NCBI GenBank assembly: GCA_938017685.1
Contig: CALIIL010000030.1
Span: 1-64,000 of the forward strand
Reading direction: 5' to 3'
Length of the DNA: 64,000 bases
DNA from: an uncultured Chitinophagaceae bacterium
GTDB taxonomy: Bacteria > Bacteroidota > Bacteroidia > Chitinophagales > Chitinophagaceae
How positions within the stretch are numbered: the first letter of the stretch is position 1; each line of letters starts with the position of its first letter. Positions 4,421-42,025 of the stretch are shown one piece after another. Under the pieces are notes generated by a model, which was not told the origin of the DNA, did not search any database, and worked only from the letters and a program-made list of their open reading frames with translations. A program made the position numbers and the translations under genes.

Positions 4421-4444
4421 GGATAAAGGCCCCTACAAACAAAA

Positions 4445-4470: not shown

Positions 4471-4474
4471 AGAA

Positions 4475-4496: not shown

Positions 4497-4601
4497 TATT
4501 CATTCAAATGCTTCTATTTTCTTTAAAATTCATACTAATTGCTAATATAACTGAGTGTAAGAAGAATACAATGTCAATTAAAAGCTCGAAAATGAATAAA
4601 A

Positions 4602-4622
4602 TGTTTACCCCAATGTTTACCC
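4602..4622. promoter_or_regulatory. putative left integrase arm-type sites (TGTTTACCC x2)
   Basis: TGTTTACCC at 4602-4610 and 4614-4622; same motif pair at right end. Confidence 0.6.
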
Positions 4623-4662
4623 TAATAGATAATTGTTCTGTAATTTTAGACAAATCGTTCGT

Positions 4663-5865
4663 ATGCCAAGTATTTCAATTGTATTCCGTAAAGATAAACT
4701 AAATAAAAAAAGTGAAGCCCCCATCCACTTTCGTATTATCAAAAATAGAAAAGTGAGGTATATTTCATCTGGCCAAATGCTTCATCAAAAACATTGGGAC
4801 GGTAAAAAGAATAAAGTAAAATCCTCATTTAAAAACTCAGCAAGATTAAATAATCTACTAACAACTAAACTGTCAGAATTTCAGAGTAAAATACTTGAGG
4901 CTGAAACAACAAATGACAAAAAATCTTCAGCCTATTTAAGAGAACTTATTGTTGGCAAGAAAAATATAGACTTCTTTTCATTTGCAGATAAAATTGTAGA
5001 AAGTTATCAATTAAAAAACCAAATTGGCACCTATGATAAAAGCAAATCCATTATCGCTAAGCTAAAAGGATACTTTGACGGAAAGAGTACTTCTTTTAAA
5101 GAAATTTCGCCGAGCTTATTAAGCGACTACGAGCAATACTTAAGACGAGAACATAAAAACAAAACAAACACCATACTGCGTGATATGAAATTTATCTCAA
5201 AAATATTTAATGACGCTTATAGGGAAGAATTAATAGAACACAAAGACAACCCTTTCTTGCGATATAAAAAACCCAAAGAAGAAAAAACAAAGAAAGAATA
5301 CTTAGCGGAAGAAGAGTTAGAACGGTTAGAAAATTTAGAAATGATTGAAAATACCAAGATTGCAACGCACCGCGACATTTTCATATTTTCTTGTAATGGT
5401 GGTGGCGAAAGAATTTCTGATTTATTTACTTTAGAATGGAAAAATTTCGATGGTACACATATCAATTTCTCAACAACTAAAACAGAAACGCAGCTATCTA
5501 TTTTATTACCTAAAAAAGCATTGGCAATTCTAAAGAAATACAAGAAAAAGAATACACGTTTTGTTTTTCCTATCCTTAAAGAAGATTTAGACTTAAACAA
5601 TGCCAGACAATTAGATAATGACATAAGCTCAGCAACTGCTCTAATGAACAAAAACCTGAAAAAGATCGCAAAGCGAGCAGAAATTGAAAAGAACATTAGT
5701 ACACATACTGCAAGACATACTTGGGCAACCCGAGCACTACGTAAAGGAATAAGTATTGATAAAGTTTCTAAGATACTGGGGCATTCTAATATTAAACAGA
5801 CTCAAGTCTATGCCAAGATTGTAAGTTCGGAATTGGACAAAGCCATGCAAGCATTTGATGAATAG
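4663..5865 (+). CDS. tyrosine recombinase/integrase (phage_int_SAM-like, Bacteroidetes type)
   Basis: C-terminal HTARHTWATRALRKGISIDKVSKILGHSNIKQTQVYAKI; ORF can begin at 4633, MPSISIVFRKDK start at 4663 preferred. Confidence 0.95.
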   Translation: MPSISIVFRKDKLNKKSEAPIHFRIIKNRKVRYISSGQMLHQKHWDGKKNKVKSSFKNSARLNNLLTTKLSEFQSKILEAETTNDKKSSAYLRELIVGKKNIDFFSFADKIVESYQLKNQIGTYDKSKSIIAKLKGYFDGKSTSFKEISPSLLSDYEQYLRREHKNKTNTILRDMKFISKIFNDAYREELIEHKDNPFLRYKKPKEEKTKKEYLAEEELERLENLEMIENTKIATHRDIFIFSCNGGGERISDLFTLEWKNFDGTHINFSTTKTETQLSILLPKKALAILKKYKKKNTRFVFPILKEDLDLNNARQLDNDISSATALMNKNLKKIAKRAEIEKNISTHTARHTWATRALRKGISIDKVSKILGHSNIKQTQVYAKIVSSELDKAMQAFDE

Positions 5866-5917
5866 GTTTAGGTAATTAACTCAACGAGCATTATTTTTAA
5901 TAAAATTAGAAATAATA

Positions 5918-7642: not shown

Positions 7643-8034
7643 TGTGATTGGAAAAAATAGTGAGACCATCGCTGTAGCTGATGATTTTAAGCAACAATAT
7701 TACTATGCACTGCAGCTGTTATAGTATCTAACTTCTTATGTGAGTACTAAATAAAAAAAAATAACGCATCCTGTTAATACTGCTATTCCTTCTTTAAAAT
7801 TAGCTCTTATTATAATATACTGACGCACCGCATGGCGGCGCTGACGGTTTAGAGAACCTAATTTACCAATACGTTCGCGATGACTTTGTTGCGCAAAAAC
7901 ATCCCAAACAGCCGTTATAAGAACACTTCGAACGGATGACACACATTGGAAAAATACTTCGATTAGCGAGATTGTAAACAAACTCATGTGCACTTCACGA
8001 AAGATGCAAAATTCTCATGTCTAAATCTGACACG

Positions 8035-8571
8035 TTACTTATTGTTGTTTTTCAATAAGGTGTCTCTTTCTAAAATATTTATCATATTGTCAAGTACAAC
8101 GTATAGCTGCTGTTCTTCAACATTAGCTCCAATTAGATGTTTTTTTAGATTACTTAAAAAACTAATGATAAAAGAGATATTCGAACCAAATTTTTGCACA
8201 ACATTAGTTCTATTTTTTAATTCAAGATCAACAATAGAATTATAATAAATGTTTTCATATGGCTTCAAACAACGAGAAATATTTAAATCCATATCATAAC
8301 TTTTTAAATAATTTGCTACCAAACTAAATGTTCTATCTTTTATCAATAAAAAAACTTGTTTATTCGAATCAATAGTAAAACCACGCGTGTATTTCGAATT
8401 TAGAATAAAACGTTTATATCGGTCAAGTTCGAGCGAGTCCGAACCTAAATACAATTCATTATATCTAAAATCTTCTGAATAAAAATTTGTTCTAAATGAA
8501 ACAAGCGTTTGAGCTTCACCAACTAAAAAAAACAACAATAAAACACTTGTACATGTAAGGCTCTTCTTCAT
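8035..8571 (-). CDS. small secreted protein downstream of Rhs protein; candidate partner/immunity protein
   Basis: Signal peptide MKKSLTCTSVLLLFFLVGEAQ; start 4 nt from the Rhs stop codon. Confidence 0.6.
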   Translation of the reverse strand: MKKSLTCTSVLLLFFLVGEAQTLVSFRTNFYSEDFRYNELYLGSDSLELDRYKRFILNSKYTRGFTIDSNKQVFLLIKDRTFSLVANYLKSYDMDLNISRCLKPYENIYYNSIVDLELKNRTNVVQKFGSNISFIISFLSNLKKHLIGANVEEQQLYVVLDNMINILERDTLLKNNNK

Positions 8572-8575
8572 AAAT

Positions 8576-11500
8576 CTATCTTTGATATCTATTGGGGTTA
8601 TTAATAACATTCATATGAAACTGAGAAGGAGTAGTTACATTGATTTGTTTATATCTTTGATTACCCATTGTAGTACTAAAACTCCAACCATAACTTGTAG
8701 TTTGAAGCCTTATCATGGAGTTATTCTTCCTAATGCCAACCAAGGATAACTCAGCGCGCCAAGAAAAATTTCTATCTGCAGGTCTTGCTGGAGTATCAGA
8801 GAATTTAAAATTTCCTACATCCTCGTAGTTTGCATTAGAAAAAGTTCTGTCAATTTCATTATCTGTATATTCCATGGAATTATAAAAAACGCCACCACCA
8901 TCATTATCAACAAAAGGTTGATTAGGAAATGACCCGTTAGCGGGGAAGTCCGTTACAATAGTTTGAACCCATTTAACATCTTTTAATGTGGACAATATCT
9001 CAGGATCAATACTCGATTTATCTACGGAATAATCAAATACTACAAATGATTCTAAATCTTCATATTCATTCGCTTCCACAAAATTAGCTTCATACAAATG
9101 AGTAGTTCCTTCTGTAACATCTTCCGGTTCCTCATCAGCCATTTCCTCTAATTTCTCTTTGAGCGCCTCTAAATCCATACTAGAAATATCCTTAGGAAGA
9201 TGAACATCTGAATCTTCTTCATCAAGCATCTCTTCAATTTCTGATCTTAATTGAGCGTTATGCTCTTCCATTTTTAAGCCATTAACATAATCTGTATGTT
9301 CGGCGTCGGCTGCGGCCATGTCTGCGAAAACATCCACAGTTGGAAAAACTGATGCTATCGCTACTTCAGCTGCCAACATAGGTTCACTACTAACATAAAC
9401 ATTATTCCAAGCATTCTGCCTTTCACTTTGATTAGACCTATTAATGCTCCAAGTCGCTTGACTTTTGTAATCTTGCACTGCCACCATGCCCGTAGGATCT
9501 ACAAAACTTGTAGGGTTATTGGCCATGCCCACATAACCACTCGCAAACTGCCCAGCAGGATCTACACTAGCAAAGCGTCCCAACAATGGGTCATACTGCC
9601 TTGCATGAAAGTCATACAAATTCAAGTTCTCCGTTTGGGTCAATTCTTTGGTTTGGTACAGTTGTTGGTTCGTTGGTTTTATATTTAAATCCTGGCTTAT
9701 ACGCACTGCCATACCGTAAGGGTAATAATGGTTCTCTTCCAAGAGTGCTCCTCTATAAAACCGTATATCTAAATCATCGAACCAGCTAACCATTCCAGTG
9801 CTCTCATTAGAGATGTAAATAGCAATATAACCACCTTGCTTTATTACTAAATCACCATTAGTTTGTAGTGTATGCCAGTTATCAGCAGTGTTCACTTGGA
9901 CCGCACCACATTGGTCGGGCACAATCTTATAGTTCTCATCAAAAACTACATAGTTTAAATAGGCACGTGGCTTTGTTGGATCTGTCAGTTGGTTCTTAAT
10001 AGCATCATAGCCGCCAATGTAATTGCTATAGTTAAAGGTATTATTTACAATCTCAGCATTACTTGGGCCTTCTCCCTGAGGTTCTTGAGAGGCATTACTC
10101 AGCAAGGTATTGATAATTTGCTCTAGCATATCCTCTCCGCTCGTTGTACCTGTTGGTGTGCTACTACCATCATAATAAGCATCAGCACTGATATTAACCT
10201 TATCTCCCGCCATTACATGTAGCAATAGAGAAGTACCTACGCGTGTGGCTGGGTCATCACCGTCTAAGCGAGCAGCTCTTCCATTACTTGGTCCAGTACC
10301 AGGTCGCACTCCTCGGCGGCCGTCTATATTTTCAAAAACAGCTTCCTCTACTTGCGCATAAGCTACCTCGTGCGTGGCTAAGTAATCGTAAAAAGGCATA
10401 AGTTGTGAGGTCACAACTGTTCTTACATTGTCTAAATGATCTTTGACCAAATAGTCATAATTAAAAGTGCCTGCTTGGTTATTGGCACCTGCCGCATAAC
10501 GCGCACGACCTTCGGCATGATATTTTAGTGATAAATCTTTGTCCTTATATTCATAGCCTCCAATAAATGCTCTGGCCATAGGCACAGCATTTTGCGTTGT
10601 TATCTCCTCAAGTTTACTGCCATCAGCTGTATAAATATAATCAATGGTGGTACCGTTATTAAACTGAAGTTTATCAGGCTTGTCCAAATAATTGAAAGTG
10701 GTCTCTACTTGCTTATTGGCATCTGAAGTGGTATTACCATTTTTATCATAGCTGTAATCCTGCCCCCCAGGATTATGATCTTGGAACTCTTGTTCTACAC
10801 TTCCAGGGTTTCCAAAGTTTGCATTATCGGTCACTTCTTCTAAGCGATTACTCACATCTCCATTAGTATAAGCTAGTTGCAATTCATCCCAAGTTTGTAT
10901 GCCTGATTGATCTGTACCCATTCGATGCACACTCAATATATTACCGTTGGCATCATAGTTTAATTCTGAAACTGTAAAATCCACTTGTGCATCATCCCAA
11001 TCCGCTGGATTAGTATTTGTGGTTCCGTCGAACTGGTCAAAATCAGCATGTAATAATTGTCCATTTGTACTATAAGTATAACCGTAAGAACGTGGTTTTA
11101 CCGAAGGGGTGCACCATGTTATTCCACTAATATTACCATCATATCTTTTCTCATTAAACCCATGGTCATATTTTATACTCTCGCCAAAGGTTGTATTGGG
11201 CATAGAAACGCCAGTCTCAGCATACGATTTATTTATACCTGTTAACTGTCCGCGGATATTGTTTTCGTACCGTTGTATTTCTACTTGACCCATATTCTTC
11301 TCTATCAAAGCACCTGTCTGACTATCGTAAGTTAACTCATTTATGATTTCCCAGTTCTGATTATCTATCTTTTGAGACACTTTTAACAACTTGAAAGTCC
11401 GCGCTTGGTATTCATGCTTGTCAGTAGTCCAATGCGTTGAAGATGTTGCACTGCTTGGGTTATTAATGTCAGGGTAGATCGTTTTATTATGTTCACTAAT

Positions 11501-23056: not shown

Positions 23057-23809
23057 TTACTTATTTGCCTCCCAAACAAATAGATTTGTTTTACTCTCTA
23101 GATATAGAGTTGATTTTAGTAATTCATACCCAGACCTCTGTTGTATTCTTTTAATCAGTTTAACCTTAGCGGCATTTCCGTCAAGCCCACGATGTAAATA
23201 TCCAATAGCACCGATTAATAAATCAGTAAGTTGCAAAACTTCTACCTCGTCAGAACGCACCTGTTGAATTCTTCTAATTATTTTTTCCTTAAAGTCATAG
23301 TGTGTTGTTCTCAAGTATTTGAGAAGTTTTACAATTTTCTCTTGCATATTAGTATCCTTAATATCAAGATATATATAATACGAATGGCTAGGAGACATTA
23401 TAACCTTCAAGAGATCAAAATACATTTTATAATAAAAATCTTCATGCGTTTGGTTATAACGTTCATGGTCTAGTTGAGACTTACTAGGCACCACTAAACC
23501 TCTAAATTTAAGATCATCATCATCATAAAAATAATCAATCAATTCAAGATAAAAATTAACTTTAGAATTAGATACCTTATTCCACTTAACTTCAAATTTC
23601 CTGCCTAGTTTATGCTTTTCTTTAATCTCCCTTATACGAGTAAAAATTTCCTGCCTTTTCTTTTTGGGACATATAATTGCACCCAAAACCATAACATCGC
23701 TTTTGTCTTTTAATAAATGACAACTTTCATCACAATATATATTTAATTCCCCCACTATTAATTTTTCATTGCAAAAGTAACACAAGAATTTTTTATCATA
23801 AAAACTCAT
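23057..23809 (-). CDS. DUF3800 domain protein (RNase H-like fold)
   Basis: LNIYCDESCH...YIYLDIKDT...SDEVEVLQLTDLLIGAIGY; true start may be GTG near 23755 rather than ATG 23809. Confidence 0.8.
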   Translation of the reverse strand: MSFYDKKFLCYFCNEKLIVGELNIYCDESCHLLKDKSDVMVLGAIICPKKKRQEIFTRIREIKEKHKLGRKFEVKWNKVSNSKVNFYLELIDYFYDDDDLKFRGLVVPSKSQLDHERYNQTHEDFYYKMYFDLLKVIMSPSHSYYIYLDIKDTNMQEKIVKLLKYLRTTHYDFKEKIIRRIQQVRSDEVEVLQLTDLLIGAIGYLHRGLDGNAAKVKLIKRIQQRSGYELLKSTLYLESKTNLFVWEANK

Positions 23810-23826
23810 GTCACACCATTCTCTAC

Positions 23827-24090
23827 ATGGGATAGCTAAGGGAAGCCCTTAGCCAAGATAGCGATAGTGACAGCCATCATGCTATCTATGAGTTAAACAA
23901 GAAACAAATGAGATGTTTTTTTTCTTGATGGGATTGCAAAGGGTTTCCTTTTGCCAAGACTGCGTTGGGGCATGAACGATAGTGACCGTCACAACGCAAT
24001 CTTGCTAATATCCAAAGGCTATTACAGATAAATATTACGACCTTAGTAAAGGTCTTAGAGTTCGACCGAAAATTTCAATAGTGACCGTCA
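23827..24090. repeat. structured repeat array (two ~65-75-nt homologous units plus a third partial unit)
   Basis: (C/A)(G/A)ATAGTGAC(A/C)G(C/T)CA at 23862-23876, 23977-23991, 24076-24090; hairpins with compensatory changes. Confidence 0.7.
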
Positions 24091-24149
24091 TATAAATCAC
24101 TTGCAACCACAAAGCTGCCTTTTAAAATTGAGCCCCGAAAAGGCTTGTT

Positions 24150-24677
24150 TTAAAATTCGGAATACTCTTTAATAATTTCCTTTAACAGAAATTGGCCGAA
24201 AATTGCTGTTTCGCTAAAGCCATCAAAATGACCATTTTCACGAGCAACTCCAAAATATTGTCTTGCTTCTTCGTAATTAGGAACGGTCAATCTTCTTTGA
24301 AATTCAGCATATTCTCTTATGTCTCGTATTGGGCAAGCTAAGTATTCTTCATCAATGATTTCGCCATAATCTAAAAAACCCGCAAGCTTTACATATAAAT
24401 AATCGGGTTCAATAAATTGGTGTAAGTGAACATCTCGCCTGCCCGATTTCCCCCCATGTTGATAGCAATTTGAGCTTCTAGGGTTTCCCTTATTAAAAGG
24501 AGATTTAGAGGCATGGTGAACGATATTGAAGCTGTGATAGTCATGTTTTCTATTAATTAAGCCATCTTGGCCAGTATGGCTACTTGTATCGTCAAGCCAT
24601 TCTACCATCCCATCTTCGGGTTTCTCGATTAATTCGCCGCAAGTATCGCAGATATATTGTTTCAAGGGTGTCAGCAT
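24150..24677 (-). CDS. hypothetical protein with CxxC motif
   Basis: MLTPLKQYICDTCGELIEKPEDGMVEWLDD; the upstream extension in the 332-aa ORF is antisense-frame read-through of 24781..25188. Confidence 0.6.
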   Translation of the reverse strand: MLTPLKQYICDTCGELIEKPEDGMVEWLDDTSSHTGQDGLINRKHDYHSFNIVHHASKSPFNKGNPRSSNCYQHGGKSGRRDVHLHQFIEPDYLYVKLAGFLDYGEIIDEEYLACPIRDIREYAEFQRRLTVPNYEEARQYFGVARENGHFDGFSETAIFGQFLLKEIIKEYSEF

Positions 24678-24780
24678 ATTTGAATGTTTTATTTTCAAAA
24701 ATACGATTTGTTTTATGAACGAGATAGAGTAATAAAAAAGCTCGCTGAAGCGAGCTAGTATCAAATTGTAAGAAGTAGGG

Positions 24781-25188
24781 TTACTGCCTCCAAAATTGTT
24801 CAGAAGCATCAAAGCCAATCCATTTACCAGTATCATCATACCCACGACAACCAAGTTCATAACGGATAAACTTTTCAAATGGAATGTTATGAGCCAATAT
24901 GAAACGAAGTAAATTTCCGTCCATAGTGGAAATAACACCTGATAAGTTTTCCCAATGCTGTAAGGGTTCGGTGTCGGTACGGATAGCTTGAATATCCTTG
25001 TAATCCATTTTATGATATTGGGTTTCCATTGAAATGTGATACGAGGTGTCAGTTTCTGTATCTTTAGAACACACCAAGTAATTGCCATTATCATGTTCAA
25101 TAACATAAAAGGACATATCGGTGTGAACGAAATTGAGCCAGTTGGCATAATCTATTGCTTTTTGTTTGTCAGTATATTCTTGCATCAT
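24781..25188 (-). CDS. hypothetical accessory protein (135 aa)
   Basis: Coherent acidic ORF, typical mobile-element accessory gene. Confidence 0.55.
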   Translation of the reverse strand: MMQEYTDKQKAIDYANWLNFVHTDMSFYVIEHDNGNYLVCSKDTETDTSYHISMETQYHKMDYKDIQAIRTDTEPLQHWENLSGVISTMDGNLLRFILAHNIPFEKFIRYELGCRGYDDTGKWIGFDASEQFWRQ

Positions 25189-25281
25189 TGTAAATAAATT
25201 TATTCGGCCAAGCTATGAGGTATTTATAGACTACCCATGACCACTTAGGGAATGTTACCGACAATATACCTACATGACATA

Positions 25282-26073
25282 TTATTCAATTTTGTAGTTC
25301 GTTGTTACGACTTCAATTTTTCGTTCTCGCTTACTTCCATTTTTTGATTTACTCGCCGTCAGCGGTCGGTCAAATCGTTTCTGATACCAACCGTTACGTT
25401 TTACAAATTCATCAAGTAGCGGACTGTCATAAGTCGTTAGGAGAAATTTCCCTTTGAGCGTAGAAATGAGTGCAAGTAGATTTTCAAAATCACTTTCAGT
25501 ATAGCCACCATAATGTCCCATGTCCGCATTGAAATATGGTGGGTCAATAAAATGGAAGGCGTCTGAGCTATCACGAGAAGCAATAACCTTGACTGCATCA
25601 TTACATTCAATTTGTGTATTTTCTAATCTCTTAGAAAGCTCTTGTGTAAATTGTAATTTTCGATTATTAAATGCTTTTACTTTTTGTCCTATTTTATCAT
25701 ACGACCACGAACCTATCATTCCAGAAAACCCTTGTGTTGTCAGTACCCAAAATGCCCATGCTTTTTGTAATTCAGTAAAGAAATGAGGAAGTTGATACAT
25801 GCTATGAGCAACCTTAAAAGCTACACGACTAAAAAGTGTCGCTTCAATTTTTGATTGTAATATTTCAAAATCAGTTTTGAGTACAGAAAAGAAATTGGTT
25901 ACAAAACCATTAGTGTCATTTATGATTTCCGTCTTTGACTTCTCCTTCGCGAAAAAGAGTGCACCACCGCCCATGAATGCCTCGGTATATGTCGAATAAT
26001 TCTTAGGGAAAAGCGGTAAAATTTTCTGTACTAAACTGAGTTTTCCTCCGTAATACGGGATCGGGCTTTTCAT
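25282..26073 (-). CDS. D12-class N6-adenine DNA methyltransferase
   Basis: PYYGGKLSLVQKILPLFPK, FMGGGALFFAK, FHFIDPPYFNADMGHYGGY motifs. Confidence 0.92.
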   Translation of the reverse strand: MKSPIPYYGGKLSLVQKILPLFPKNYSTYTEAFMGGGALFFAKEKSKTEIINDTNGFVTNFFSVLKTDFEILQSKIEATLFSRVAFKVAHSMYQLPHFFTELQKAWAFWVLTTQGFSGMIGSWSYDKIGQKVKAFNNRKLQFTQELSKRLENTQIECNDAVKVIASRDSSDAFHFIDPPYFNADMGHYGGYTESDFENLLALISTLKGKFLLTTYDSPLLDEFVKRNGWYQKRFDRPLTASKSKNGSKRERKIEVVTTNYKIE

Positions 26074-26103
26074 ACGAGTTAATTGGTTATAATTGATAAT
26101 GGG

Positions 26104-26463
26104 CTAAATGTTTAGCCCTAATTCATTGGCGAGTAATTGCGCTGTTTCTTCAAATGCAAACCATGTGTACCAATTCATTAAATCTCCATTGGGCGTAAGG
26201 GCGTGGCCGAGCATTTCTTCTTGCTCATATCGCAGTTCTTCGATTTCGGCATAATGCTTATTAAAGAAAGCGTGTGTGTCAGCGTAATAAACTAAAATAG
26301 AAATCATACCACTTACGCAGCCATATTCTAATAAGTCAGAAAAGAAGTCCGCTATGTTTTCACTCGTGTAGTCTAGTGCCTCTTGCGCGACTTCCTTGCG
26401 AATACTATGGCCGCTTTCGTTTGTGATTTCTTCTAGTTTGTTTTTCAGTTGTTCGTTATTCAT
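26104..26463 (-). CDS. phage/plasmid-type hypothetical protein
   Basis: SGMISILVYYADTHAFFNKHYAEIEELRYE...NWYTWFAFEETAQLLANELGL. Confidence 0.6.
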   Translation of the reverse strand: MNNEQLKNKLEEITNESGHSIRKEVAQEALDYTSENIADFFSDLLEYGCVSGMISILVYYADTHAFFNKHYAEIEELRYEQEEMLGHALTPNGDLMNWYTWFAFEETAQLLANELGLNI

Positions 26464-26531
26464 TGCTATTATATTTTGCTTCCTTAGCATTTTGCACCAA
26501 GAACGAAAAACGAAATACTATCACTCTGTTG

Positions 26532-27725
26532 TCATAAAAAGTCTTGATATGGAATGGTCACAGCGGTAAACGGTTTTGAAGGCGATTTATCTACCATCAG
26601 TTTTATCCAAACATGGTACTTAGGCATATCAACAAAATCTCCTATGGTTAGTTCGGGCATTTTCTCTTTATACATTTCTTTAAGCATGTAAGTGGCGTCC
26701 TGCGCCGAAGTGCGAAATGATACGATTGAGCCAACATTCCCAAAGACACTTTCGCGGATATCTCCCTTAAGCTGGCTCAGGTGCTGAAAACTTATCTCTA
26801 AGAAAATTTTGAACTTTCTCATCTCAGACAAATAGTTCACTATGGAATACGTTGCATATTGTCCAAATTCATCGAGATATAAAAAGAAGGGCAATCTTTT
26901 TTCTTCGGGTGTATCTACGCGTGAAAACCCTGCACTCGCCATAGAGGATAAGAGTAACGAAGCCATGACTTGGGTCGTATCCATACCAAGCGAACCTTTG
27001 CTTAAATTAATGAGTAATATTTTACCCTCGTCCATAATCTGGCGCAGTGAAATATTTTCTTTGTTTTCAATTAGCACTCTTTTAATGGCAGGGTGTGCTA
27101 AGAACGCACCGACCTTGTTTGTTATCGGTAGAAAATCATTTTTCGAGTATTTATCAAACTCCTGTAACCAAAACTTTTTCAGGTCAGGATTGACCACATG
27201 AGTAATACACTTCTCTCGAAATGCCTTATCATGAATAATGCGCGTAATGTCTGCAATGTTGGCTTTGGGTTGGTCAAGCAAGCTCAAAATGATATTACGT
27301 AACAATCCTTCCATACGAATACCCCAAGCAGCTCCAAAGAGCCGTTGGAAGCTCTCTAAGAGCGCGCTAGCGACTAAGGAACGCTTCTCGTATGATACTT
27401 TGCGTAAGGGATTGTAACCAAGCTTTAATTGAGGATTAGGCAAGTCTAAATAGACAATATCTTTTTGTCGGTGCTTAGGAATGTGCGGTAAAAGTGTCGG
27501 TATAATATCCGCGTGAATATCATATACACAAAAGCCAAACTTGCTTCTTGCTTGTTGAATAAGTTGGCATAATATTAAATTTGTTTTACCTGCACCTGTC
27601 TTTCCCAATGTTATTTTATGCAAGGCTCTGTCAGCTAATTTTAATCCGACTAATCTGCCATGCCCTCTGAAATTTGATTTTGCAAAATAGCTATTATCAG
27701 GATTTTTGTATTTGAGTTTAAGCAT
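26532..27725 (-). CDS. type IV coupling/HerA-like ATPase
   Basis: Walker A TLGKTGAGKTNL, Walker B FFLYLDEFGQYA, SFQHLSQLKGD. Confidence 0.8.
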   Translation of the reverse strand: MLKLKYKNPDNSYFAKSNFRGHGRLVGLKLADRALHKITLGKTGAGKTNLILCQLIQQARSKFGFCVYDIHADIIPTLLPHIPKHRQKDIVYLDLPNPQLKLGYNPLRKVSYEKRSLVASALLESFQRLFGAAWGIRMEGLLRNIILSLLDQPKANIADITRIIHDKAFREKCITHVVNPDLKKFWLQEFDKYSKNDFLPITNKVGAFLAHPAIKRVLIENKENISLRQIMDEGKILLINLSKGSLGMDTTQVMASLLLSSMASAGFSRVDTPEEKRLPFFLYLDEFGQYATYSIVNYLSEMRKFKIFLEISFQHLSQLKGDIRESVFGNVGSIVSFRTSAQDATYMLKEMYKEKMPELTIGDFVDMPKYHVWIKLMVDKSPSKPFTAVTIPYQDFL

Positions 27726-27756
27726 AACGATTGTATGATTACTCTAGTAATAAACC

Positions 27757-28563
27757 TCACTCCAATTTCATAAATGAGTTATTTTTTAACTCTTGATAAA
27801 TTTTGGGAGACTTCTCTCGTACGAATTTATTCAGCGTTTCTTGTATAATATTGGCAACCCAATATTCTGAACCATCAGGTGGTGCCATATCCATATCTTT
27901 GTAGTCAATATAATCACTCGAAGACATATATTCACCTTTTACAGTAAAGAGATACACTAAGTGAAGCGTAAACAAAGTTTCAAAATCTGTTTGAAATCTA
28001 TCCAAAGCTTGCAAGCGATACTTAATGTAAATCTCATTATCATTAACTATCAGATTAGAGAGATAATTGTAATGCGTATTGTCATTGCCACGCTTACGAA
28101 TATCCTTAATCGCTTCGTGATTAATAAGTTCATTGATTTTCTGAAGTTTAGAACATGAGTTTAATGTCTCACTCATTTTTCTATATGTAGGAGCCTTTTT
28201 CTCGCCAATTATCCAATCGTTGATTTCATCAACGACATATTTTGGAAACTCATTTTCTAAGCCATCTTCCAATTTAATAAGCGTAAATACATTTAAAATG
28301 ATTGCGTCATGGAACTTTCTTAAAAGGGTAAAGCCATCTCCAATTCGAGCTTTTTCTAGAATAGTTTTTATAGAGTCTGTTGTTCCTTGCATCGATGAAA
28401 AAATATGGCGGTCGATATTTCCTTTATATAAATAACCCGGTATTATAAAACCCATGGCAACTCCAGACATATACTCATAAAACTCTATGACTTCTTCCAG
28501 AATTGAAAAAACCTTGTGGTCATTATATTCTTTTCCTTGATTGATATGACGTTTTTCTAACAT
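27757..28563 (-). CDS. hypothetical protein, possible HEPN-like
   Basis: R-x5-H-like motif in IKDIRKRGNDNTHYNYL, mostly helical. Confidence 0.4.
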   Translation of the reverse strand: MLEKRHINQGKEYNDHKVFSILEEVIEFYEYMSGVAMGFIIPGYLYKGNIDRHIFSSMQGTTDSIKTILEKARIGDGFTLLRKFHDAIILNVFTLIKLEDGLENEFPKYVVDEINDWIIGEKKAPTYRKMSETLNSCSKLQKINELINHEAIKDIRKRGNDNTHYNYLSNLIVNDNEIYIKYRLQALDRFQTDFETLFTLHLVYLFTVKGEYMSSSDYIDYKDMDMAPPDGSEYWVANIIQETLNKFVREKSPKIYQELKNNSFMKLE

Positions 28564-29075
28564 TCATTAAATTTACTCCTAATTGATAATATTTCTGCTA
28601 GTCTTGCTGTATCAGACTTTCTCTTTTTGCACGGATTTTTCCCTTTTTGTTCTTTTAGTTTTGAATTATTTAGTTTTGTTATATGACTTTTTTGCACATC
28701 TTTTTGTCGTAAAATGCATTGGCTTTTGTCGTTTTCTGCACTAGCACCAAGTAAAGGTGTGTAATATATGCAGGTCTTTCCCTTGCGTTGGTCGGCAGAG
28801 ACAAGAACCTTGCCTCCATAGTCGCTTGCTCGGATTAATTCTTTTTCAATCAAGGATTGAATAGCACTAGAAATAACTCTACGAGATAGTCCTGTTTTTG
28901 TTTCAAATTGTGCGTATGAAATTCTATCTCTTTTCTTTCGTTTTCCATTGGGTAATACCCAACCGTATGTTTGACGAATAATAATCGCGAGTATTTTGAT
29001 TTCAGAACCTGAGAGGTTCTTCAAATGGAAATCAAAAAACACATTAGGCATGTGCGTTGTGTTTTTATAATTCAT
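28557..29075 (-). CDS. winged-helix replication-type protein (phage RepO N-terminal-like)
   Basis: LSGSEIKILAIIIRQTYGWVLPNGKRKKRDRISYAQFETKTGLSRRVISSAIQSLIEKELI. Confidence 0.65.
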   Translation of the reverse strand: MNYKNTTHMPNVFFDFHLKNLSGSEIKILAIIIRQTYGWVLPNGKRKKRDRISYAQFETKTGLSRRVISSAIQSLIEKELIRASDYGGKVLVSADQRKGKTCIYYTPLLGASAENDKSQCILRQKDVQKSHITKLNNSKLKEQKGKNPCKKRKSDTARLAEILSIRSKFNEC

Positions 29076-31222: not shown

Positions 31223-31573
31223 ATGAAAACAAAACAATCATTATCAGCGTATAGAAGCGAACAAGAAATTGCCCTCAAAGACATTGCTCGTGTGCTTCAG
31301 ATAGATACTGCTAATCTTTCTCGCATGGAGCGAGGAGTTAGAGAACCTAGTACGCGTTTATTTCTTCTGTACCACATTTTATTCGATGATATATCTATTC
31401 CGCAATACTTCCGTAAAAACTATAGTCAATGGATAACTCAAATCATACAACGAACTACTTTACTCACAGAGGAACTTGAAAAAGAACAAAGCCCGAATGC
31501 AGAATATAGAGTAGCATATCTCAAGCACATATTAAACCGTCTAAGCACATTGAAACATGAGAGCGAAAAATAG
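31223..31573 (+). CDS. XRE-family HTH regulator
   Basis: LKDIARVLQIDTANLSRMERGVREPSTRLFLLYHIL. Confidence 0.8.
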   Translation: MKTKQSLSAYRSEQEIALKDIARVLQIDTANLSRMERGVREPSTRLFLLYHILFDDISIPQYFRKNYSQWITQIIQRTTLLTEELEKEQSPNAEYRVAYLKHILNRLSTLKHESEK

Positions 31574-32066
31574 CGAAGGCTACGAGCGGGTGCTCTCGTT
31601 CTTTCCCAATGCTCGAGGCGTGGGGTTTGCATATATGGAGGGGCCGATAACAATCTTAGATAAAGGTGTATACAAACAGGACAAGGCAAATAACGTTCAA
31701 CTCATGAAGCGTATTAAAGCTTTAGTGAAGGAGCTACAACCCGAACGAATTTTGTTGGAAGAAATTATCAAGGATACAAAATCAATGCGAGTGAGTAATT
31801 TGATAAAGGAAATTTCGCGTCATGCTAAAACAAAAAATATTCCAGTAACTTTCTATTCAAGAGAGCAGATACAGTTTGTATTCTCAATATGGACGAAGGT
31901 AAAGAAGTCTTCAAAATATGAAATTGCCAAAGTGATTTCAGATTATATTAAGCCCATGCAATTCTTTTTTTACAACGAGCCAAAATATCCAAAGGGAGAG
32001 CCGCATTTTGCTTCGCTCTTTCATGCCGTGTCGATTGGCATTTCGCATTTTTATGTGACGACTTAA
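31557..32066 (+). CDS. RuvC-like (RNase H fold) protein
   Basis: FFPNARGVGFAYMEGP...PERILLEEI...HFASLFHAVSIGISHFY; overlaps the XRE gene. Confidence 0.5.
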   Translation: MRAKNSEGYERVLSFFPNARGVGFAYMEGPITILDKGVYKQDKANNVQLMKRIKALVKELQPERILLEEIIKDTKSMRVSNLIKEISRHAKTKNIPVTFYSREQIQFVFSIWTKVKKSSKYEIAKVISDYIKPMQFFFYNEPKYPKGEPHFASLFHAVSIGISHFYVTT

Positions 32067-32214
32067 AAAACGTACTGTTTACAGGAGCCTGAAAATTGTC
32101 GCGTGGGATTTTTTGACGTTTTCAGTTTAATTATTACCCATCATTATTTGGATAAATAACAAAACGAACTACTTTTTAAGGCAAGTGGTTTTTTTTATAG
32201 AGAAATAGCCAACC

Positions 32215-32239
32215 TAACTTTTTACAAAAAGTTATTTTA
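32215..32239. repeat. left copy of 25-bp palindromic cassette-flanking repeat
   Basis: TAACTTTTTACAAAAAGTTATTTTA, 22/25 identical to 35525..35549. Confidence 0.8.
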
Positions 32240-32290
32240 CGAATAAAATAACCGTCTCATTCCCTTATTTTGTGAAAAAAACATTCTATC

Positions 32291-32959
32291 ATGAAGCAGT
32301 ACAAGTATTTCTCATTCATAACAGGCATCTTTTGTGCAGCATTGGTTATCTCTAATGTCTTAGATACCAAGTTATTTCAAATCGGAAGTGCAGCATTTCC
32401 AGCGGGCATAATATTGTTTCCTATCGTCTATGTATTCGGTGATATTTTTACGGAAGTGTACGGTTTTAGCTACAGCCGTAAAGCAATTTGGGCAGGTTTC
32501 TTTTCTTTATTAATCATGGTAATTACATTGGAGATAGCACGACATCTTGAGCCAGCTGGTTTTTGGAAGAACCAAGAAGCCTTTGAGGCTATCCTCGGTA
32601 AGGTTTGGCGCATCGCTATTGCTTCCATCGTTGCATATTTATCAGGAGAGTTTGTAAATTCATTTACTATGGCAAAAATGAAAGTGAAGCAAGGAGGAAA
32701 GTCTATGCCAATACGTTTTGTGGTTTCTACTATTTTTGGACAGGCAGTAGATACGTCTGTATTTATACTTATTGCCTTTGCAGGAACAATGAATTTTTCA
32801 GCTATGTTTACTTTGTTTTTGTCGGCATGGGCTTTTAAAGTGATTTGGGAGGTGCTGGTACTACCTATAAGCATACCTCTTGTAAATAGACTTAAGAAAA
32901 TTGAAAATGAAGATTACTATGATAATAATACCGACTTTAATCCCTTCAAGATTTCATAG
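32291..32959 (+). CDS. queuosine precursor transporter (YhhQ/VUT family)
   Basis: LVISNVLDTKLFQIG...FPAGIILFPIVYVFGDIFTEVYGFSYSRKAIWAGF; multi-pass membrane. Confidence 0.9.
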   Translation: MKQYKYFSFITGIFCAALVISNVLDTKLFQIGSAAFPAGIILFPIVYVFGDIFTEVYGFSYSRKAIWAGFFSLLIMVITLEIARHLEPAGFWKNQEAFEAILGKVWRIAIASIVAYLSGEFVNSFTMAKMKVKQGGKSMPIRFVVSTIFGQAVDTSVFILIAFAGTMNFSAMFTLFLSAWAFKVIWEVLVLPISIPLVNRLKKIENEDYYDNNTDFNPFKIS

Positions 32960-32963
32960 TAGT

Positions 32964-33653
32964 ATGAGTAAAAGTAGGGTTAATAAAAAAGAAGTATATT
33001 ACTTCAAGGAGGAGTATTGCAATGAAAATGAAACTATAGTCGAAATAATAAATAAGGACTTACAACAATATTTCAAACCACCTATTCTTGACGTAGGCTC
33101 TGGTATTGGCGATATTGCGTTTAAGTCATTTAAAGGAAAGAAGACAATACTTATAGACGTTAATCCAATCACTAAGCATGATTACCCTTGCCGACCGAAA
33201 CACGTCCGCAAGCAGGCAGATTTCTTAGAGTTCAAAAGCAAAGAGCAAATCAATACCATTCTTATTTCTCATACACTTCAATTCATTGACGAAGATATAG
33301 AAGAGTTAAATGGCAAAATTGAAGAACTAAAACCCGAGTATCTTGTTATGGTTTTGAACAAAAACAATGATTTTATGGGAGAGGTTATAGAATGGACAAA
33401 TGAACATTTTGCCATTTCAAATCCCGAAGTACGGATAGATAACTTCCCTCTGGGGTATAATCTAATTAAAAGCGTCCCCTTTGTGGCTGAAATTATTTGC
33501 GAAGATTTTGAAACACTAGCACAGCAAATTTCCTATCTTATGCTAATAGACCTTAAAGAAAAGAAGCAAGAGATTTTAACTTTTTTGAAAACCAATCTAC
33601 AAACCCCTAGTTTTACATTTAATCAATCCATAGACGTATATCACAGATTATGA
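32964..33653 (+). CDS. class I SAM-dependent methyltransferase-like protein
   Basis: PPILDVGSGIGDIAFKSFKGKKTILIDVNP; 4-nt overlap with the next gene. Confidence 0.7.
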   Translation: MSKSRVNKKEVYYFKEEYCNENETIVEIINKDLQQYFKPPILDVGSGIGDIAFKSFKGKKTILIDVNPITKHDYPCRPKHVRKQADFLEFKSKEQINTILISHTLQFIDEDIEELNGKIEELKPEYLVMVLNKNNDFMGEVIEWTNEHFAISNPEVRIDNFPLGYNLIKSVPFVAEIICEDFETLAQQISYLMLIDLKEKKQEILTFLKTNLQTPSFTFNQSIDVYHRL

Positions 33654-34168
33654 GCAAAGACAATTTACAAACTTTATTTGGCTTCGTTGAAAACGAAGAA
33701 GTCCGCGAAAAATTACAGCAGTCAGAAGACCGCATACGCCGTTCGTACAATGAGCTATTTTCGGGCTATAAACTACAAGCCAAAGATATTCTCAATGACG
33801 TAGTCCATGTAAAGGATTACAATGGAATTGTAGAAATGAGAAACATTCAGTTTTATAGTATGTGCGAACATCACTTTGCACCATTTTTTGGCAGTTGTGA
33901 TATTTACTATCAACCCAAGGAAATAATAACTGGGCTTGGTAAGCTGGTGCGACTTGTTAAGGATATGCACAGTAAGCGGCTTCAAATACAAGAGTTAATG
34001 ACTCGAGATATATGTCAAGATATTATGAAGGAGTTGGAAGCAGAAGGTTGTTATGTAAGAACGCAGGCGAAACATCTTTGTATATGCTCTCGTGGCCCAC
34101 AAGATGATTTGTCTGAAACAGTTTGTACGTATGCAGAAGGAACTCTTAAAAATAAAATATTTGAGTAA
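33650..34168 (+). CDS. folE: GTP cyclohydrolase I family protein
   Basis: FYSMCEHHFAPFFG, GLGKLVRLV, RLQIQELMT, AKHLCICSRGPQDD. Confidence 0.9.
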   Translation: MSKDNLQTLFGFVENEEVREKLQQSEDRIRRSYNELFSGYKLQAKDILNDVVHVKDYNGIVEMRNIQFYSMCEHHFAPFFGSCDIYYQPKEIITGLGKLVRLVKDMHSKRLQIQELMTRDICQDIMKELEAEGCYVRTQAKHLCICSRGPQDDLSETVCTYAEGTLKNKIFE

Positions 34169-34176
34169 GTAGCAGT

Positions 34177-35526
34177 ATGTCCTCTTTTGAAATACATAAC
34201 GACTTTAATGAACTAGATTTTATTTTAAAAAAATCCAGCTCGGAGAAGGATTTGTTTGATATGATTACAAGAGAGATTTTCGGCGATAATTTACTTTTTG
34301 CTATTATAGAAACAACAACTATAGGCGACGTTTCGGGAGTAGGAACAAGTCAATATATTGCTCACAAGCCTTATGAGTATATACAAGAAGTAATCCATAA
34401 AGATTATTTCGACATTATTCAAACTGTAAAAAGTGATAAGTTTGGCGGGCCCTCTAAATATATCAATTGGTACAGGAGAGATAATAGTTATTATGTTATT
34501 GGAAAGAATAGGGAGACGGAGAAATCATTTGAAGGAAAATTGAATAGTGAAATATTACCACCATACGAAAAGGACAAAACAGCTGAGCAATACATTTCAG
34601 ATTATGTAACTCCCTTAACGGAAGAAACAATACGCAGTTTCTTTAATTTATACGTGGACAGTTTACTTGAAAAAGAGTGGTTTAGAGAGCTGCCGAATTA
34701 TTTTGTTTTAGTTAAGCCATTAAGTGTCAAAGACGATAGTGCTTGGTATATCCCTTTAGGAAATCTATATGTAAAGATTGGAACTAAGACTACTGTTGAA
34801 CTAGAAACATATCAAAAGTATGTGACTATTTTACAAACGGCTTGGTTCAAAAAATATGGAGCCAAAATGCTTCAAGAGTTTTCAAAAAAACGAACCAGTG
34901 ACGAGTATAAGCCGAAGTATACCATCGATAAGGATATGGGGAAGCGTTTTGGCGAACCTTTATTTACTATTAGTGGTAGGCCAATAATGTTTCATGACCT
35001 CTTTCAGATTACTTTTGATTCTGAGGAATACAGAGCGTGTCAAGAGACAGAAGGGTATTTGCTATTGGAATCATCGGAGTTAATAAAAGAATTAATAAAA
35101 AAAGACCCTACAAATAAGCAAGGTATTTCTGATTTTGTTCGTTCCATTTTTAAAGATTATTCCGAAAATGACCCTGCCAATTTCATCAAGGCCAACAAGG
35201 ACGGATTGGTGAAGTTAAATGGTATTGGTAAAGAATGTGTTCACTATTTTCTGCAACTATTGTCTCTACGGAGACTGGCACTTATGTTGTTGTTCGTGTA
35301 TGACATGACTTTTGAAGAAGTGCATAGTTGTATTACATATGGTGAGAGAGGCAAAAGTAAATCACCAAGCATCTCCAAGTACTTTCGTGAAAATACATTT
35401 GTTTATAAAAAGAACAGGAAGCTAAACGTTGAACTACTTGCAGAGCGAGAGGAGAAATTTCTGCAAAACACATTTCAAAAGATACAGAAAAATTTTCCAA
35501 ACTTCTCCAGTACCCTTTTCAAATAA
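34177..35526 (+). CDS. hypothetical protein, no family recognised (449 aa)
   Basis: Long ORF 8 nt downstream of folE, same operon. Confidence 0.8.
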   Translation: MSSFEIHNDFNELDFILKKSSSEKDLFDMITREIFGDNLLFAIIETTTIGDVSGVGTSQYIAHKPYEYIQEVIHKDYFDIIQTVKSDKFGGPSKYINWYRRDNSYYVIGKNRETEKSFEGKLNSEILPPYEKDKTAEQYISDYVTPLTEETIRSFFNLYVDSLLEKEWFRELPNYFVLVKPLSVKDDSAWYIPLGNLYVKIGTKTTVELETYQKYVTILQTAWFKKYGAKMLQEFSKKRTSDEYKPKYTIDKDMGKRFGEPLFTISGRPIMFHDLFQITFDSEEYRACQETEGYLLLESSELIKELIKKDPTNKQGISDFVRSIFKDYSENDPANFIKANKDGLVKLNGIGKECVHYFLQLLSLRRLALMLLFVYDMTFEEVHSCITYGERGKSKSPSISKYFRENTFVYKKNRKLNVELLAEREEKFLQNTFQKIQKNFPNFSSTLFK

Positions 35527-35549
35527 CTTTTAACCAAAAGTTATGTTAG
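35525..35549. repeat. right copy of 25-bp palindromic cassette-flanking repeat
   Basis: TAACTTTTAACCAAAAGTTATGTTA, begins at the stop codon of the 449-aa ORF. Confidence 0.8.
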
Positions 35550-35853
35550 CATAGTTTTTTTTGAAATAAAGTTATTTCAATTCCATGTTTCTATCTAAAA
35601 GTTAAGTGCGGCCATTTGAGCTTTTTACTCCTTTATACATTCGAAGAAGTTTTCAAAGTTGCGTTGGCAAAGTTCAAAATCGGGGCACAAAAAAGAGCCC
35701 TTAGTATAAGAGCCCCGCCAACCTCCCGTCAAAGGCATTGGCTAAGGTATATAAGTTTCTGACTCTTATTTACCCTACAATCACACTAGCAAGGCCAATA
35801 TAATTGTCAATACCTAGGACGGTTTTTGAGACGTAACGTTTAAAAGCCGAATT

Positions 35854-38066: not shown

Positions 38067-39572
38067 ATGAATAAGGAAAAATTTCTAGACTATTTACGAA
38101 GAGGAGCAAGTGCTACTTCTCATTTTTTCAACAGAGCGAAATCATTTACACAAGACGCAGTCATTCAAACTGAATATTTGAATAATAAGCTGGAGAAAAC
38201 AGATAGGCAGCGTAAAGCAACTTTCTCAAAGCCAAGAGAGGTGGGATTGGCTCCAAACAACCGAGGTTGGAGATACGGTGCAGAATACGCGCTTTCACTC
38301 GACCAGCCCACTTTTCGCATGGGTGCTGTGATAGGAAATACTGGGTCGGGCAAAAGTACAAAATGTATCAATACCTTACTCGCCAGTAAAAATGAAGCTT
38401 CTATTGTAACAAGAAATACGGGTGGGCAAGAAGGTTGCTTTGGATATATAGCATCGCAAGGATACGACATACATCATATTAATGTATCAGAGCCTGAAAT
38501 GAGCAGCGACTGTTTCAACCCACTCGAAGGAGATTTGGACGAAGCAGCCATTAAACGCATTGCTCATATTTTAACTAAGACAAGCTATTCGGATAAGGAG
38601 GATTTCTGGTCACTTCAAGCTGAGAATATTTGTGGTACAGAAATAGAAACGCTTAAAAAATGTTTTCCACCAGAGTTTCATACGGTCTATCATTTGAAGA
38701 TTTTAAACGAAGAATTACAGGGAGATTTCTCAATTCTCGACCAGCGATTGGGAGCTTGTGACGACGAGGGGTTACACAGAAAATGGAAAGCCATTTTTTC
38801 TTTAGACGAAAAAGTATGTTCAGGTGCACTAGCAACTATTGCAACAACTTTGAGCCGATTAGATAGCTCTCTAGGTCGTCTTATGAGTACTTCTACATTT
38901 CGCTGGGAAGAACTCCGTACAAAGAAAAAACTCATTATGATAACGAGCAATCCTGCCGACGCTTCATACCTCGGGGTCTTTGAAAGTTTACTGTATTCTC
39001 AATTATTACGTGTCATGTTGGGTGATAGTAAAATGATAAGTCATAAAGAAAATGCGGTGCTAATTCTGCTAGATGAAATCTCAAGCTTGTCACCTTCATT
39101 GGGGCCGCTTTTGGAAAAATGTTTTTTAAACTTGAGAAAGCGTAATTGTGGCATATTAGCTTGTTTTCAGGGACATGCTGCCTTGCAGAGTGCATTTGGA
39201 GAAAATGTAAAAAATGTCATTTTGGATAATTGCTATAGCAAATTGTATTTGCCAGGCGTTTCCTACTCTACATGTGAGCAGCTTTCAAGAATGATTGGAG
39301 AGGAGGTCATAGAAACGAAGTCGGGCGTAAAAGAGCGCCGACCGTATATGACACCCTATGCGATACAAAATATGAACGCATCGGAAGGGCTGCTTTTTGT
39401 ACAAGGCTATCCATGTTGCAAGCTGCACCTTCAACCATTCTACTCTAACTACAAGATGAAACGCCGTTGGGAAATACCTGCGCCACCCATGCGCACTCTT
39501 AGCGATATTGTGCCAATAGAATTGCCTCCACTTGATTTACAACCTTACGGAAACTTAAACGAAGAAAATTAA
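38067..39572 (+). CDS. VirD4/TraG-type coupling ATPase
   Basis: AVIGNTGSGKSTKCINTLL, NAVLILLDEISSLSP, ACFQGHAALQSAFG. Confidence 0.8.
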   Translation: MNKEKFLDYLRRGASATSHFFNRAKSFTQDAVIQTEYLNNKLEKTDRQRKATFSKPREVGLAPNNRGWRYGAEYALSLDQPTFRMGAVIGNTGSGKSTKCINTLLASKNEASIVTRNTGGQEGCFGYIASQGYDIHHINVSEPEMSSDCFNPLEGDLDEAAIKRIAHILTKTSYSDKEDFWSLQAENICGTEIETLKKCFPPEFHTVYHLKILNEELQGDFSILDQRLGACDDEGLHRKWKAIFSLDEKVCSGALATIATTLSRLDSSLGRLMSTSTFRWEELRTKKKLIMITSNPADASYLGVFESLLYSQLLRVMLGDSKMISHKENAVLILLDEISSLSPSLGPLLEKCFLNLRKRNCGILACFQGHAALQSAFGENVKNVILDNCYSKLYLPGVSYSTCEQLSRMIGEEVIETKSGVKERRPYMTPYAIQNMNASEGLLFVQGYPCCKLHLQPFYSNYKMKRRWEIPAPPMRTLSDIVPIELPPLDLQPYGNLNEEN

Positions 39573-39874: not shown

Positions 39875-40318
39875 ATGAAATTTGATTTTATATATATATC
39901 ACTTCATCATTTTTTAGATAGTCGTATTGAAAATGGTACGGCAACCGCCGACGAGGTCATTGCCTTGAAAAAGGAATACCGACGACTGTATAACAATGCG
40001 TATCAAAAATGGAAGCGGCAACATAAGAAAATAATACATCTCGCTATTTCGCACAAACAGTATAGCATTATGCAATCGCTTGCTGATAATCATAAGCTAA
40101 GCCTTTATCAATTTATCACGCAATCAGCTATCAATCCAAAAGTTTTTTTAGCAAATGAATTAATAGACCATGTACATATTGCTTTTACCGACTTGTGCCA
40201 AAGCATAGAAGACCAAGAATTAGAAAGTGGCCGAAGTCAAACAAAAGAAGTACAAGAAAAGTTTGAATTGTTAAATCAAGCCATCTTAAAACTTGAAAAC
40301 TCAAATAATGATAATTAA
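39875..40318 (+). CDS. mobilization accessory protein (MobC-like)
   Basis: RHH-like AISHKQYSIMQSLADNHKLSLYQFITQSAI directly before the relaxase. Confidence 0.55.
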   Translation: MKFDFIYISLHHFLDSRIENGTATADEVIALKKEYRRLYNNAYQKWKRQHKKIIHLAISHKQYSIMQSLADNHKLSLYQFITQSAINPKVFLANELIDHVHIAFTDLCQSIEDQELESGRSQTKEVQEKFELLNQAILKLENSNNDN

Positions 40319-41153
40319 GACCTTGTCTCATAAAAGTAACATGAAGTGCTTTCGCACCTTGGTAAATTATATTCTTGACCTTCAAAAAACGAAAGGGCAG
40401 TTTTTGCTCACTCGTAATTTTAGAGGAATAGATAAAAGCAAGGAAGCAATTGTTGAGCAATTTGTAATAAATGAACGTAAGCGAGATAGTCTGAGTAAAA
40501 GACGAAAAAATATTTTTGCATTTCACGACATAGTCTCCATAAGTGCCTTGGATAAAGAGAATATTTCTGAAGCGGATATATTAAAAATTGCCCGAGAATA
40601 TATGAAAATGAGAAGTAATAAAAGTCTTGCTTGCTGTGCCTATCATGCCGAGCCTCAACCGCACCTACACTTTATATTCTCGGGTGTTCAATATCATAAT
40701 CATAGGGCGGCCCGCATAGAAAAGTCTGCACTAGCTGATTTGAAAAAGCACATGGAGGAATTTCAGGAGCAATATTTGAATTTACAACATAGTACTGTGG
40801 CACATGGTAAAGGTGGTAGCAAATTGCGACCACTTGAAAGAGAGTATCGTTTAAAAGCACGCACGCAAAAATTGAGTATAAAAGAACATGCCCATTTACG
40901 TATTCAAAAAATATATGAAAGAGCAGGCAGTCCTAAAAGTTTCTTAGAGCAATTACAAACAAGTGATATTCCTGTATATGAACGCAACGGAAAACTAACA
41001 GGGATATATATTAATAATCGTAGAATAAGACTTTCCAGTCTTGGCTTTGATAAAGAAAAGATACGAGAACTGGATATCGTGTATAAGAGAATGAAGGATT
41101 TTGAAGAGGTGCGAAAAAGAAAACAAGAACGAGGTAGAGAGCGAGAACGATAG
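40308..41153 (+). CDS. MOB relaxase/mobilization nuclease
   Basis: MIIKTLSHKS start, HUH motif AEPQPHLHFIFSG, Arg-rich C-terminus. Confidence 0.85.
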   Translation: MIIKTLSHKSNMKCFRTLVNYILDLQKTKGQFLLTRNFRGIDKSKEAIVEQFVINERKRDSLSKRRKNIFAFHDIVSISALDKENISEADILKIAREYMKMRSNKSLACCAYHAEPQPHLHFIFSGVQYHNHRAARIEKSALADLKKHMEEFQEQYLNLQHSTVAHGKGGSKLRPLEREYRLKARTQKLSIKEHAHLRIQKIYERAGSPKSFLEQLQTSDIPVYERNGKLTGIYINNRRIRLSSLGFDKEKIRELDIVYKRMKDFEEVRKRKQERGRERER

Positions 41154-41951: not shown

Positions 41952-41973
41952 GTGATCCGGCTGGGGCTCGAAC
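41952..41973. repeat. attR core inside the intact tRNA-Lys
   Basis: 22-bp identity with 4475..4496. Confidence 0.95.
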
Positions 41974-42025
41974 CCAGGACCCCAACATTAAAAGTGTTGT
42001 GCTCTACCAACTGAGCTACCGGATC
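41953..42025 (-). tRNA. tRNA-Lys(TTT)
   Basis: Minus strand GATCCGGTAGCTCAGTTGGTAGAGCACAACACTTTTAATGTTGGGGTCCTGGGTTCGAGCCCCAGCCGGATCA; TTT in CTTTTAA loop. Confidence 0.97.

What the first reader, a model, noticed from the sequence alone, without database searches (positions are those of the whole stretch)
32215..35549. Four-gene deazapurine/pterin-like cassette (YhhQ transporter, SAM methyltransferase, FolE, 449-aa orphan) carried as IME cargo
Seen: four tightly packed plus-strand genes (gaps of 4, -4 and 8 nt) between the XRE/RuvC pair and the mobilization operon. Known: YhhQ-family proteins import preQ0/preQ1, and FolE makes dihydroneopterin triphosphate, the first intermediate of the preQ0 pathway. 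Phages and Dpd islands use FolE/Que enzymes plus a DpdA transglycosylase to put 7-deazaguanines in DNA. Inference: no queD, queE, queC or recognisable dpdA is present, so this is not a standard Dpd cluster. It could import or boost a deazapurine that the methyltransferase and orphan use to modify DNA, RNA or a small molecule for defence or anti-restriction.
Basis: partly seen in the sequence, partly recalled or inferred. Interest (0 to 1): 0.85.

Follow-up and report, generated by a model that had tools for sequence, protein, structure and literature searches.

The report
Mobile FolE–YhhQ–methyltransferase cassette with orphan gene

Summary
The four genes are real, at the stated positions and spacing, inside a mobilisable element next to tRNA-Lys. 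They form a discrete unit: a 30-nt inverted repeat with a palindrome that occurs nowhere else in the 2.78 Mb assembly marks both ends. YhhQ is a true COG1738/Vut_1 transporter. Its closest relative found (48% identity) lies on a Methylobacterium nodulans plasmid in the order folE–pteridine-reductase-like SDR–yhhQ–SAM methyltransferase. Related yhhQ genes sit beside queC/queF, a QueF-like T-fold gene, or folE. So linkage of yhhQ to FolE/QueF-type enzymes and a methyltransferase recurs, but the cassette's own methyltransferase and the 449-aa protein were found nowhere else. The cassette FolE keeps its zinc and catalytic residues but belongs to a rare clade with a Streptomyces plasmid protein and PDB 9ujf, not with phage or host FolE. 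The host genus has TGT and QueA but no convincing QueC or QueF, so it looks like a preQ1 salvager, and FolE cannot plausibly boost preQ0 there. The deazapurine reading is partly supported; DNA modification and defence are untested. Best guess: an IME-borne small-molecule cassette, pterin- or deazaguanine-based, with an unidentified 449-aa partner.

The parts
32208..32237 (+). left arm of the flanking inverted repeat (contains palindrome TAACTTTTTACAAAAAGTTA, 32215-32234)
32231..32252 (.). second palindrome of the left end, GTTATTTTACGAATAAAATAAC
32291..32959 (+). yhhQ-like Vut_1/COG1738 transporter, 222 aa
32964..33653 (+). class I SAM-dependent methyltransferase-like protein, 229 aa, divergent, target unknown
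33650..34168 (+). FolE-like GTP cyclohydrolase I, 172 aa, rare GLGK/CSRGP subfamily
34177..35526 (+). 449-aa orphan protein; no relatives found
35521..35550 (+). right arm of the flanking inverted repeat (palindrome TAACTTTTAACCAAAAGTTA, starts at the stop codon of the 449-aa gene)
35561..35580 (.). second palindrome of the right end, TTGAAATAAAGTTATTTCAA
29082..30659 (-). large serine recombinase of the carrier element
31223..32066 (+).
38067..39572 (+). VirD4-like coupling protein of the carrier element
40293..41153 (+). MobA/VirD2-like relaxase of the carrier element
41952..42025 (-). tRNA-Lys bordering the element

Best explanation
The four genes are one operon-like cargo cassette that was added to a mobilisable element as a unit. 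It most likely encodes a short small-molecule pathway. YhhQ moves a purine-like heterocycle (a 7-deazaguanine such as preQ1, or a related pterin) across the membrane. The specialised FolE opens GTP to dihydroneopterin triphosphate or a close analogue. The SAM methyltransferase modifies the resulting or imported heterocycle. The 449-aa protein carries out or uses the final step. Shown: gene order and spacing, families of YhhQ and FolE, conserved FolE active site, recurrent yhhQ-folE/queF(-methyltransferase) linkage, matched ends. Inferred: one pathway, the pterin or deazapurine substrate, the methylation target. Unknown: what the 449-aa protein does.
For: Tight packing; unique matched palindromic ends around exactly these four genes. 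Closest YhhQ relative found (48% over all 222 aa) sits in folE-SDR-yhhQ-SAM-MTase on the M. nodulans plasmid (clade support 0.966); the SDR is above the cut-off of NCBIfam PRK09134, with pteridine reductase as next family. Related yhhQ genes adjoin queC-queF, a QueF-like T-fold gene, queC plus a methyltransferase and folE-tgt. Cassette FolE keeps zinc and catalytic residues (C72, H74, H75, E115, H142, C144; roles from knowledge of E. coli FolE) and groups away from folate and phage FolEs. Host lacks convincing QueC and QueF, so FolE output would not go to preQ0.
Against: The M. nodulans methyltransferase is an O-methyltransferase (PF01596) with no detectable similarity to the cassette one, and its FolE is of the ordinary type, so the two clusters are analogous at best. 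One enzyme of the set (449 aa) is unassigned. No metabolite, expression or structure data. AlphaFold models without alignments were unusable (pLDDT 33 and 36). Nothing separates a pterin from a deazaguanine as substrate. No preQ1 riboswitch upstream.
Confidence: 0.4

Rival explanations
1. Nucleic-acid modification cassette: YhhQ imports preQ1 (or preQ0), the methyltransferase methylates it and the 449-aa protein inserts it into DNA or RNA as a novel transglycosylase, for protection against restriction or phages. FolE would be accessory.
For: A Streptococcus phage carries yhhQ in a queC-queD-queE-folE-yhhQ-tgt operon; yhhQ lies in about 9% of dpd islands (PMC11888242) and in some phages (PMC6884629). 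The 449-aa protein has a helix-hairpin-helix-like motif by eye (LVKLNGIGKECV, residue 344), which could bind DNA.
Against: No TGT/DpdA match: Pfam, PADLOC and PHROGs silent, profile comparison probability 1.6%, no CxCxxC zinc motif. No DNA-methyltransferase motifs. The HhH-like motif gets no Pfam support. FolE has no role in this scheme if the precursor is imported.
Confidence: 0.25
2. Plain nutritional cargo: an extra queuosine-precursor importer and an extra folate/pterin enzyme that help a salvage-dependent host, with two unrelated passenger genes.
For: Host genus is a predicted preQ1 salvager (TGT and QueA present, no convincing QueC or QueF) and has chromosomal Vut_1 genes, so import of Q precursor matters to it.
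Against: Host already has its own Vut_1 genes and a chromosomal folE (only its end is seen at a contig edge in this assembly, whole in two congeners). Cassette FolE is not of the folate type. Tight packing and common ends argue for one function.
Confidence: 0.2
3. Nucleotide-consuming conflict cassette: the FolE-like enzyme acts on GTP or dGTP to starve an invader, with the other genes as control or immunity.
For: The cassette is mobile cargo of a recombinase element, a usual place for defence genes; FolE is non-canonical in two otherwise conserved stretches.
Against: No PADLOC match to any of the four genes except a weak sub-threshold one; no precedent known to me; does not explain the transporter.
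Confidence: 0.07

Closest known systems
folE-SDR-yhhQ-SAM-methyltransferase cluster of Methylobacterium nodulans ORS 2060 plasmid pMNOD02
   Same: folE, yhhQ and a class I SAM methyltransferase together; YhhQ 48% identical and each other's best match in the plasmid collection
   Different: has a pteridine-reductase-like SDR; methyltransferase not recognisably related; ordinary FolE; no 449-aa gene; different gene order; not shown to be an IME cassette
Phage 7-deazaguanine operons (Streptococcus virus MS1 queC-D-E-folE-yhhQ-tgt; Queuovirinae such as PaMx25)
   Same: FolE and, in MS1, adjacent YhhQ
   Different: no QueC, QueD, QueE or transglycosylase in the cassette; FolE in another clade
Bacteroides-type yhhQ-queC-queF operon
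   Same: YhhQ of the same family, 37% identical
   Different: no queC or queF here; those genes serve tRNA queuosine
GLGK/CSRGP FolE clade: Streptomyces sp. 3211 plasmid FolE and PDB 9ujf
   Same: 43% identity, shared signature residues, clade support 0.997
   Different: surrounded by cupin, VOC and NUDIX genes and transposases; biological role not known from what could be read here
Dpd DNA-modification islands
   Same: mobile setting; some carry folE and yhhQ (PMC11888242)
   Different: no DpdA or other Dpd protein

Membership tests
COG1738/YhhQ (QPTR) queuosine-precursor transporters | match to Vut_1 / TIGR00697 above curated cut-off | tested here: met
   PF02592 153.7 bits (cut-off 27.2), TIGR00697 95.9 (cut-off 50.95)
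COG1738/YhhQ (QPTR) queuosine-precursor transporters | transports preQ0, preQ1 or queuine | not testable with these tools
   family is heterogeneous in substrate (PMC5372724)
GTP cyclohydrolase I (FolE) | Pfam family and zinc/catalytic residues | tested here: met
   PF01227 159.7 bits; C72, H74, H75, E115, H142, C144 conserved
GTP cyclohydrolase I (FolE) | NCBIfam folE equivalog cut-off (folate-type enzyme) | tested here: not met
   TIGR00063 134.7 bits against cut-off 181.6; all four folE models below cut-off
Dpd / phage 7-deazaguanine DNA modification | TGT/DpdA transglycosylase | tested here: not met
   no Pfam, PADLOC or PHROG match; hhalign probability 1.6%
Dpd / phage 7-deazaguanine DNA modification | preQ0 synthesis genes queD, queE, queC in the cluster | tested here: not met
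   none in the cassette; QueC also not found in the host genome
Dpd / phage 7-deazaguanine DNA modification | 7-deazaguanine in DNA | not testable with these tools
   needs LC-MS
M. nodulans-type folE-yhhQ-methyltransferase cluster | homologous transporter | tested here: met
   48% over 222 aa
M. nodulans-type folE-yhhQ-methyltransferase cluster | homologous methyltransferase and FolE of one clade | tested here: not met
   no blastp similarity of the methyltransferases; FolE of ordinary type there
Integrative and mobilisable element | site-specific recombinase, relaxase, coupling protein, insertion near a tRNA | tested here: met
Integrative and mobilisable element | defined attachment-site repeats | tested here: inconclusive
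   no shared 14-mer between tRNA-Lys region and left side

The most novel reading that the evidence does not exclude
A previously undescribed, self-contained mobile pathway in which a specialised GTP cyclohydrolase and an imported heterocycle supply a methylated pterin or deazapurine to a new 449-aa enzyme family, in a host without preQ0 synthesis.
Probability: 0.25. Interest if true: 0.8.

Novelty: new variant of a known kind. Interest (0 to 1): 0.5.

Why it matters
It ties a COG1738 transporter subfamily to FolE-type enzymes and methyltransferases outside the queuosine pathway, in at least two phyla, which bears on the open question of what else these transporters carry. It also offers a compact mobile unit with clear ends that can be cloned whole and tested by metabolomics.

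Tried and rejected
Relatives of the 449-aa protein: none in about 800 Bacteroidota genomes (three hits at E about 5e-4 to 9e-4 are an unrelated long secreted protein), a GTDB pattern scan, viral contigs, plasmids and phages, PDB. The two GTDB/viral pattern scans reach close relatives only. Methyltransferase: none in 299 genomes of the family (only generic hits), plasmids, phages or viral contigs. Weak matches RNA_pol_Rpb1_3 and PD_DExK rejected as sub-threshold. Structure prediction without alignments gave unusable models, so no fold search was run. TGT/DpdA identity of the 449-aa protein rejected. preQ1 riboswitch: none. Carrier-element relatives: only 25-30% identical in VirD4; none of 20 fetched regions holds the cassette, so no empty site could be shown. 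A first shuffle test of the inverted repeat missed the right arm because the stretch began after the stop codon; the corrected test is. QueF hits in congeners fall inside folE and are cross-matches. Role of PDB 9ujf: no paper found.

Full report
Observation. All four genes exist as described. The order yhhQ, methyltransferase, folE, 449-aa gene, with spacing +4, -4 and +8 nt, is what an operon looks like. The carrier has a large serine recombinase, VirD4-like coupling protein and relaxase, and ends next to tRNA-Lys, so 'IME cargo' is fair, although attachment repeats were not found.

Ends of the cassette. A 30-nt inverted repeat, 80% complementary, lies at 32208-32237 and 35521-35550 and is the top-ranked inverted pair of the surrounding 24 kb. 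Its core, TAACTTTTN4AAAAGTTA, occurs at these two places only in the 2.78 Mb assembly, even with one mismatch. Each end has a second, different palindrome beside it, and these are the only perfect palindromes of arm 8 or more between 28.3 and 44.9 kb. In shuffles of the two intergenic stretches 1 of 3000 reached the repeat score and 1 of 3000 shared a palindrome arm. The unit therefore looks like a discrete inserted or exchanged cassette. How it moves is unknown: no transposase lies inside it, and the palindromes could instead be regulatory or terminator-like.

YhhQ. It passes the curated thresholds of Vut_1 and the queuosine precursor transporter model. The host's own Vut_1 genes are distant (26-28%). 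The best relative found is on the Methylobacterium nodulans plasmid pMNOD02, 48% over the full length, in a cluster folE-SDR-yhhQ-SAM methyltransferase; the two are each other's best match in the plasmid collection and group with support 0.966. The SDR belongs to NCBIfam PRK09134, with pteridine reductase as the next best family. Other relatives adjoin queC-queF in Bacteroides-type DNA, a QueF-like T-fold gene in Spartinivicinus and Piscirickettsia, queC and a methyltransferase in Legionella geestiana, and folE-tgt in Streptococcus virus MS1. Zallot and colleagues (PMC5372724) already argued that the family is heterogeneous and may carry other purines.

FolE. Zinc and catalytic residues are kept. 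It falls below all four NCBIfam folE cut-offs and forms a clade of support 0.997 with a Streptomyces sp. 3211 plasmid FolE and PDB 9ujf. These three share GLGK where others have GLSK, and CSRGP where others have RGV or RGI; none of the other FolEs with a readable motif has either. Branches are long, so the clade should be treated with some caution, but the shared residues support it. The role of these relatives could not be established.

Methyltransferase and 449-aa protein. The methyltransferase has one clear SAM-binding motif and no DNA-methyltransferase catalytic motif. The 449-aa protein has no family, no relatives in any collection searched, and no useful model. A helix-hairpin-helix-like stretch at residue 344 is an eye-level lead without database support.

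Host. TGT and QueA are present. QueC gives no match in this genome and only short, borderline fragments in two congeners; QueF matches in congeners lie inside folE. Zallot and colleagues describe this pattern as preQ1-only salvage. The assembly is 93.6% complete, and QueD and QueE were not searched, so the absence of preQ0 synthesis is likely, not proven. A chromosomal folE exists (fragment at a contig edge here, whole in congeners).

Reading. The recurrent linkage of this transporter type with FolE- or QueF-type enzymes and, twice, a methyltransferase makes a shared heterocycle pathway the likeliest account. In this host FolE would not lead to preQ0, and the nearest cluster carries a pteridine-reductase-like gene, so a pterin product is at least as likely as a deazapurine. 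Nucleic-acid modification remains open but lacks any recognisable inserting enzyme. Nothing tested here speaks for or against defence.

Noticed in passing
G000 contig C111 (L047) 5727-6068 and 7798-8550: Host carries two neighbouring Vut_1 genes, one whole (250 aa) and one shortened (113 aa) with a nearly identical stretch: a local duplication of a queuosine-precursor transporter.
   Followed up: partly
L144 (Legionella geestiana plasmid) 7055-10750: yhhQ-queC-SAM methyltransferase-thioesterase-SAM methyltransferase cluster on a conjugative plasmid; another mobile deazaguanine-type cluster with methyltransferases.
   Followed up: no
L141 (M. nodulans pMNOD02) 4195-8515: VOC protein, 242-aa unknown protein, folE, pteridine-reductase-like SDR, yhhQ and O-methyltransferase in one run: a pterin- or deazapurine-type cluster whose product I could not identify.
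   Followed up: partly
L145 and L143: YhhQ with an extra N-terminal domain of about 90-100 residues, followed directly by a 133-aa QueF-like T-fold protein (below the preQ1 synthase cut-off).
   Followed up: partly
window 23057-29075, minus strand: Carrier region also holds a D12-class DNA adenine methyltransferase, a TraG/TrwB-like ATPase (45% to one in another genome, L084), a phage-replication-protein-O-like gene and a DUF3800 gene.
   Followed up: partly
window 4633-5865: A tyrosine-recombinase-like gene (410 aa), apart from the serine-recombinase element; named from its sequence by eye.
   Followed up: no
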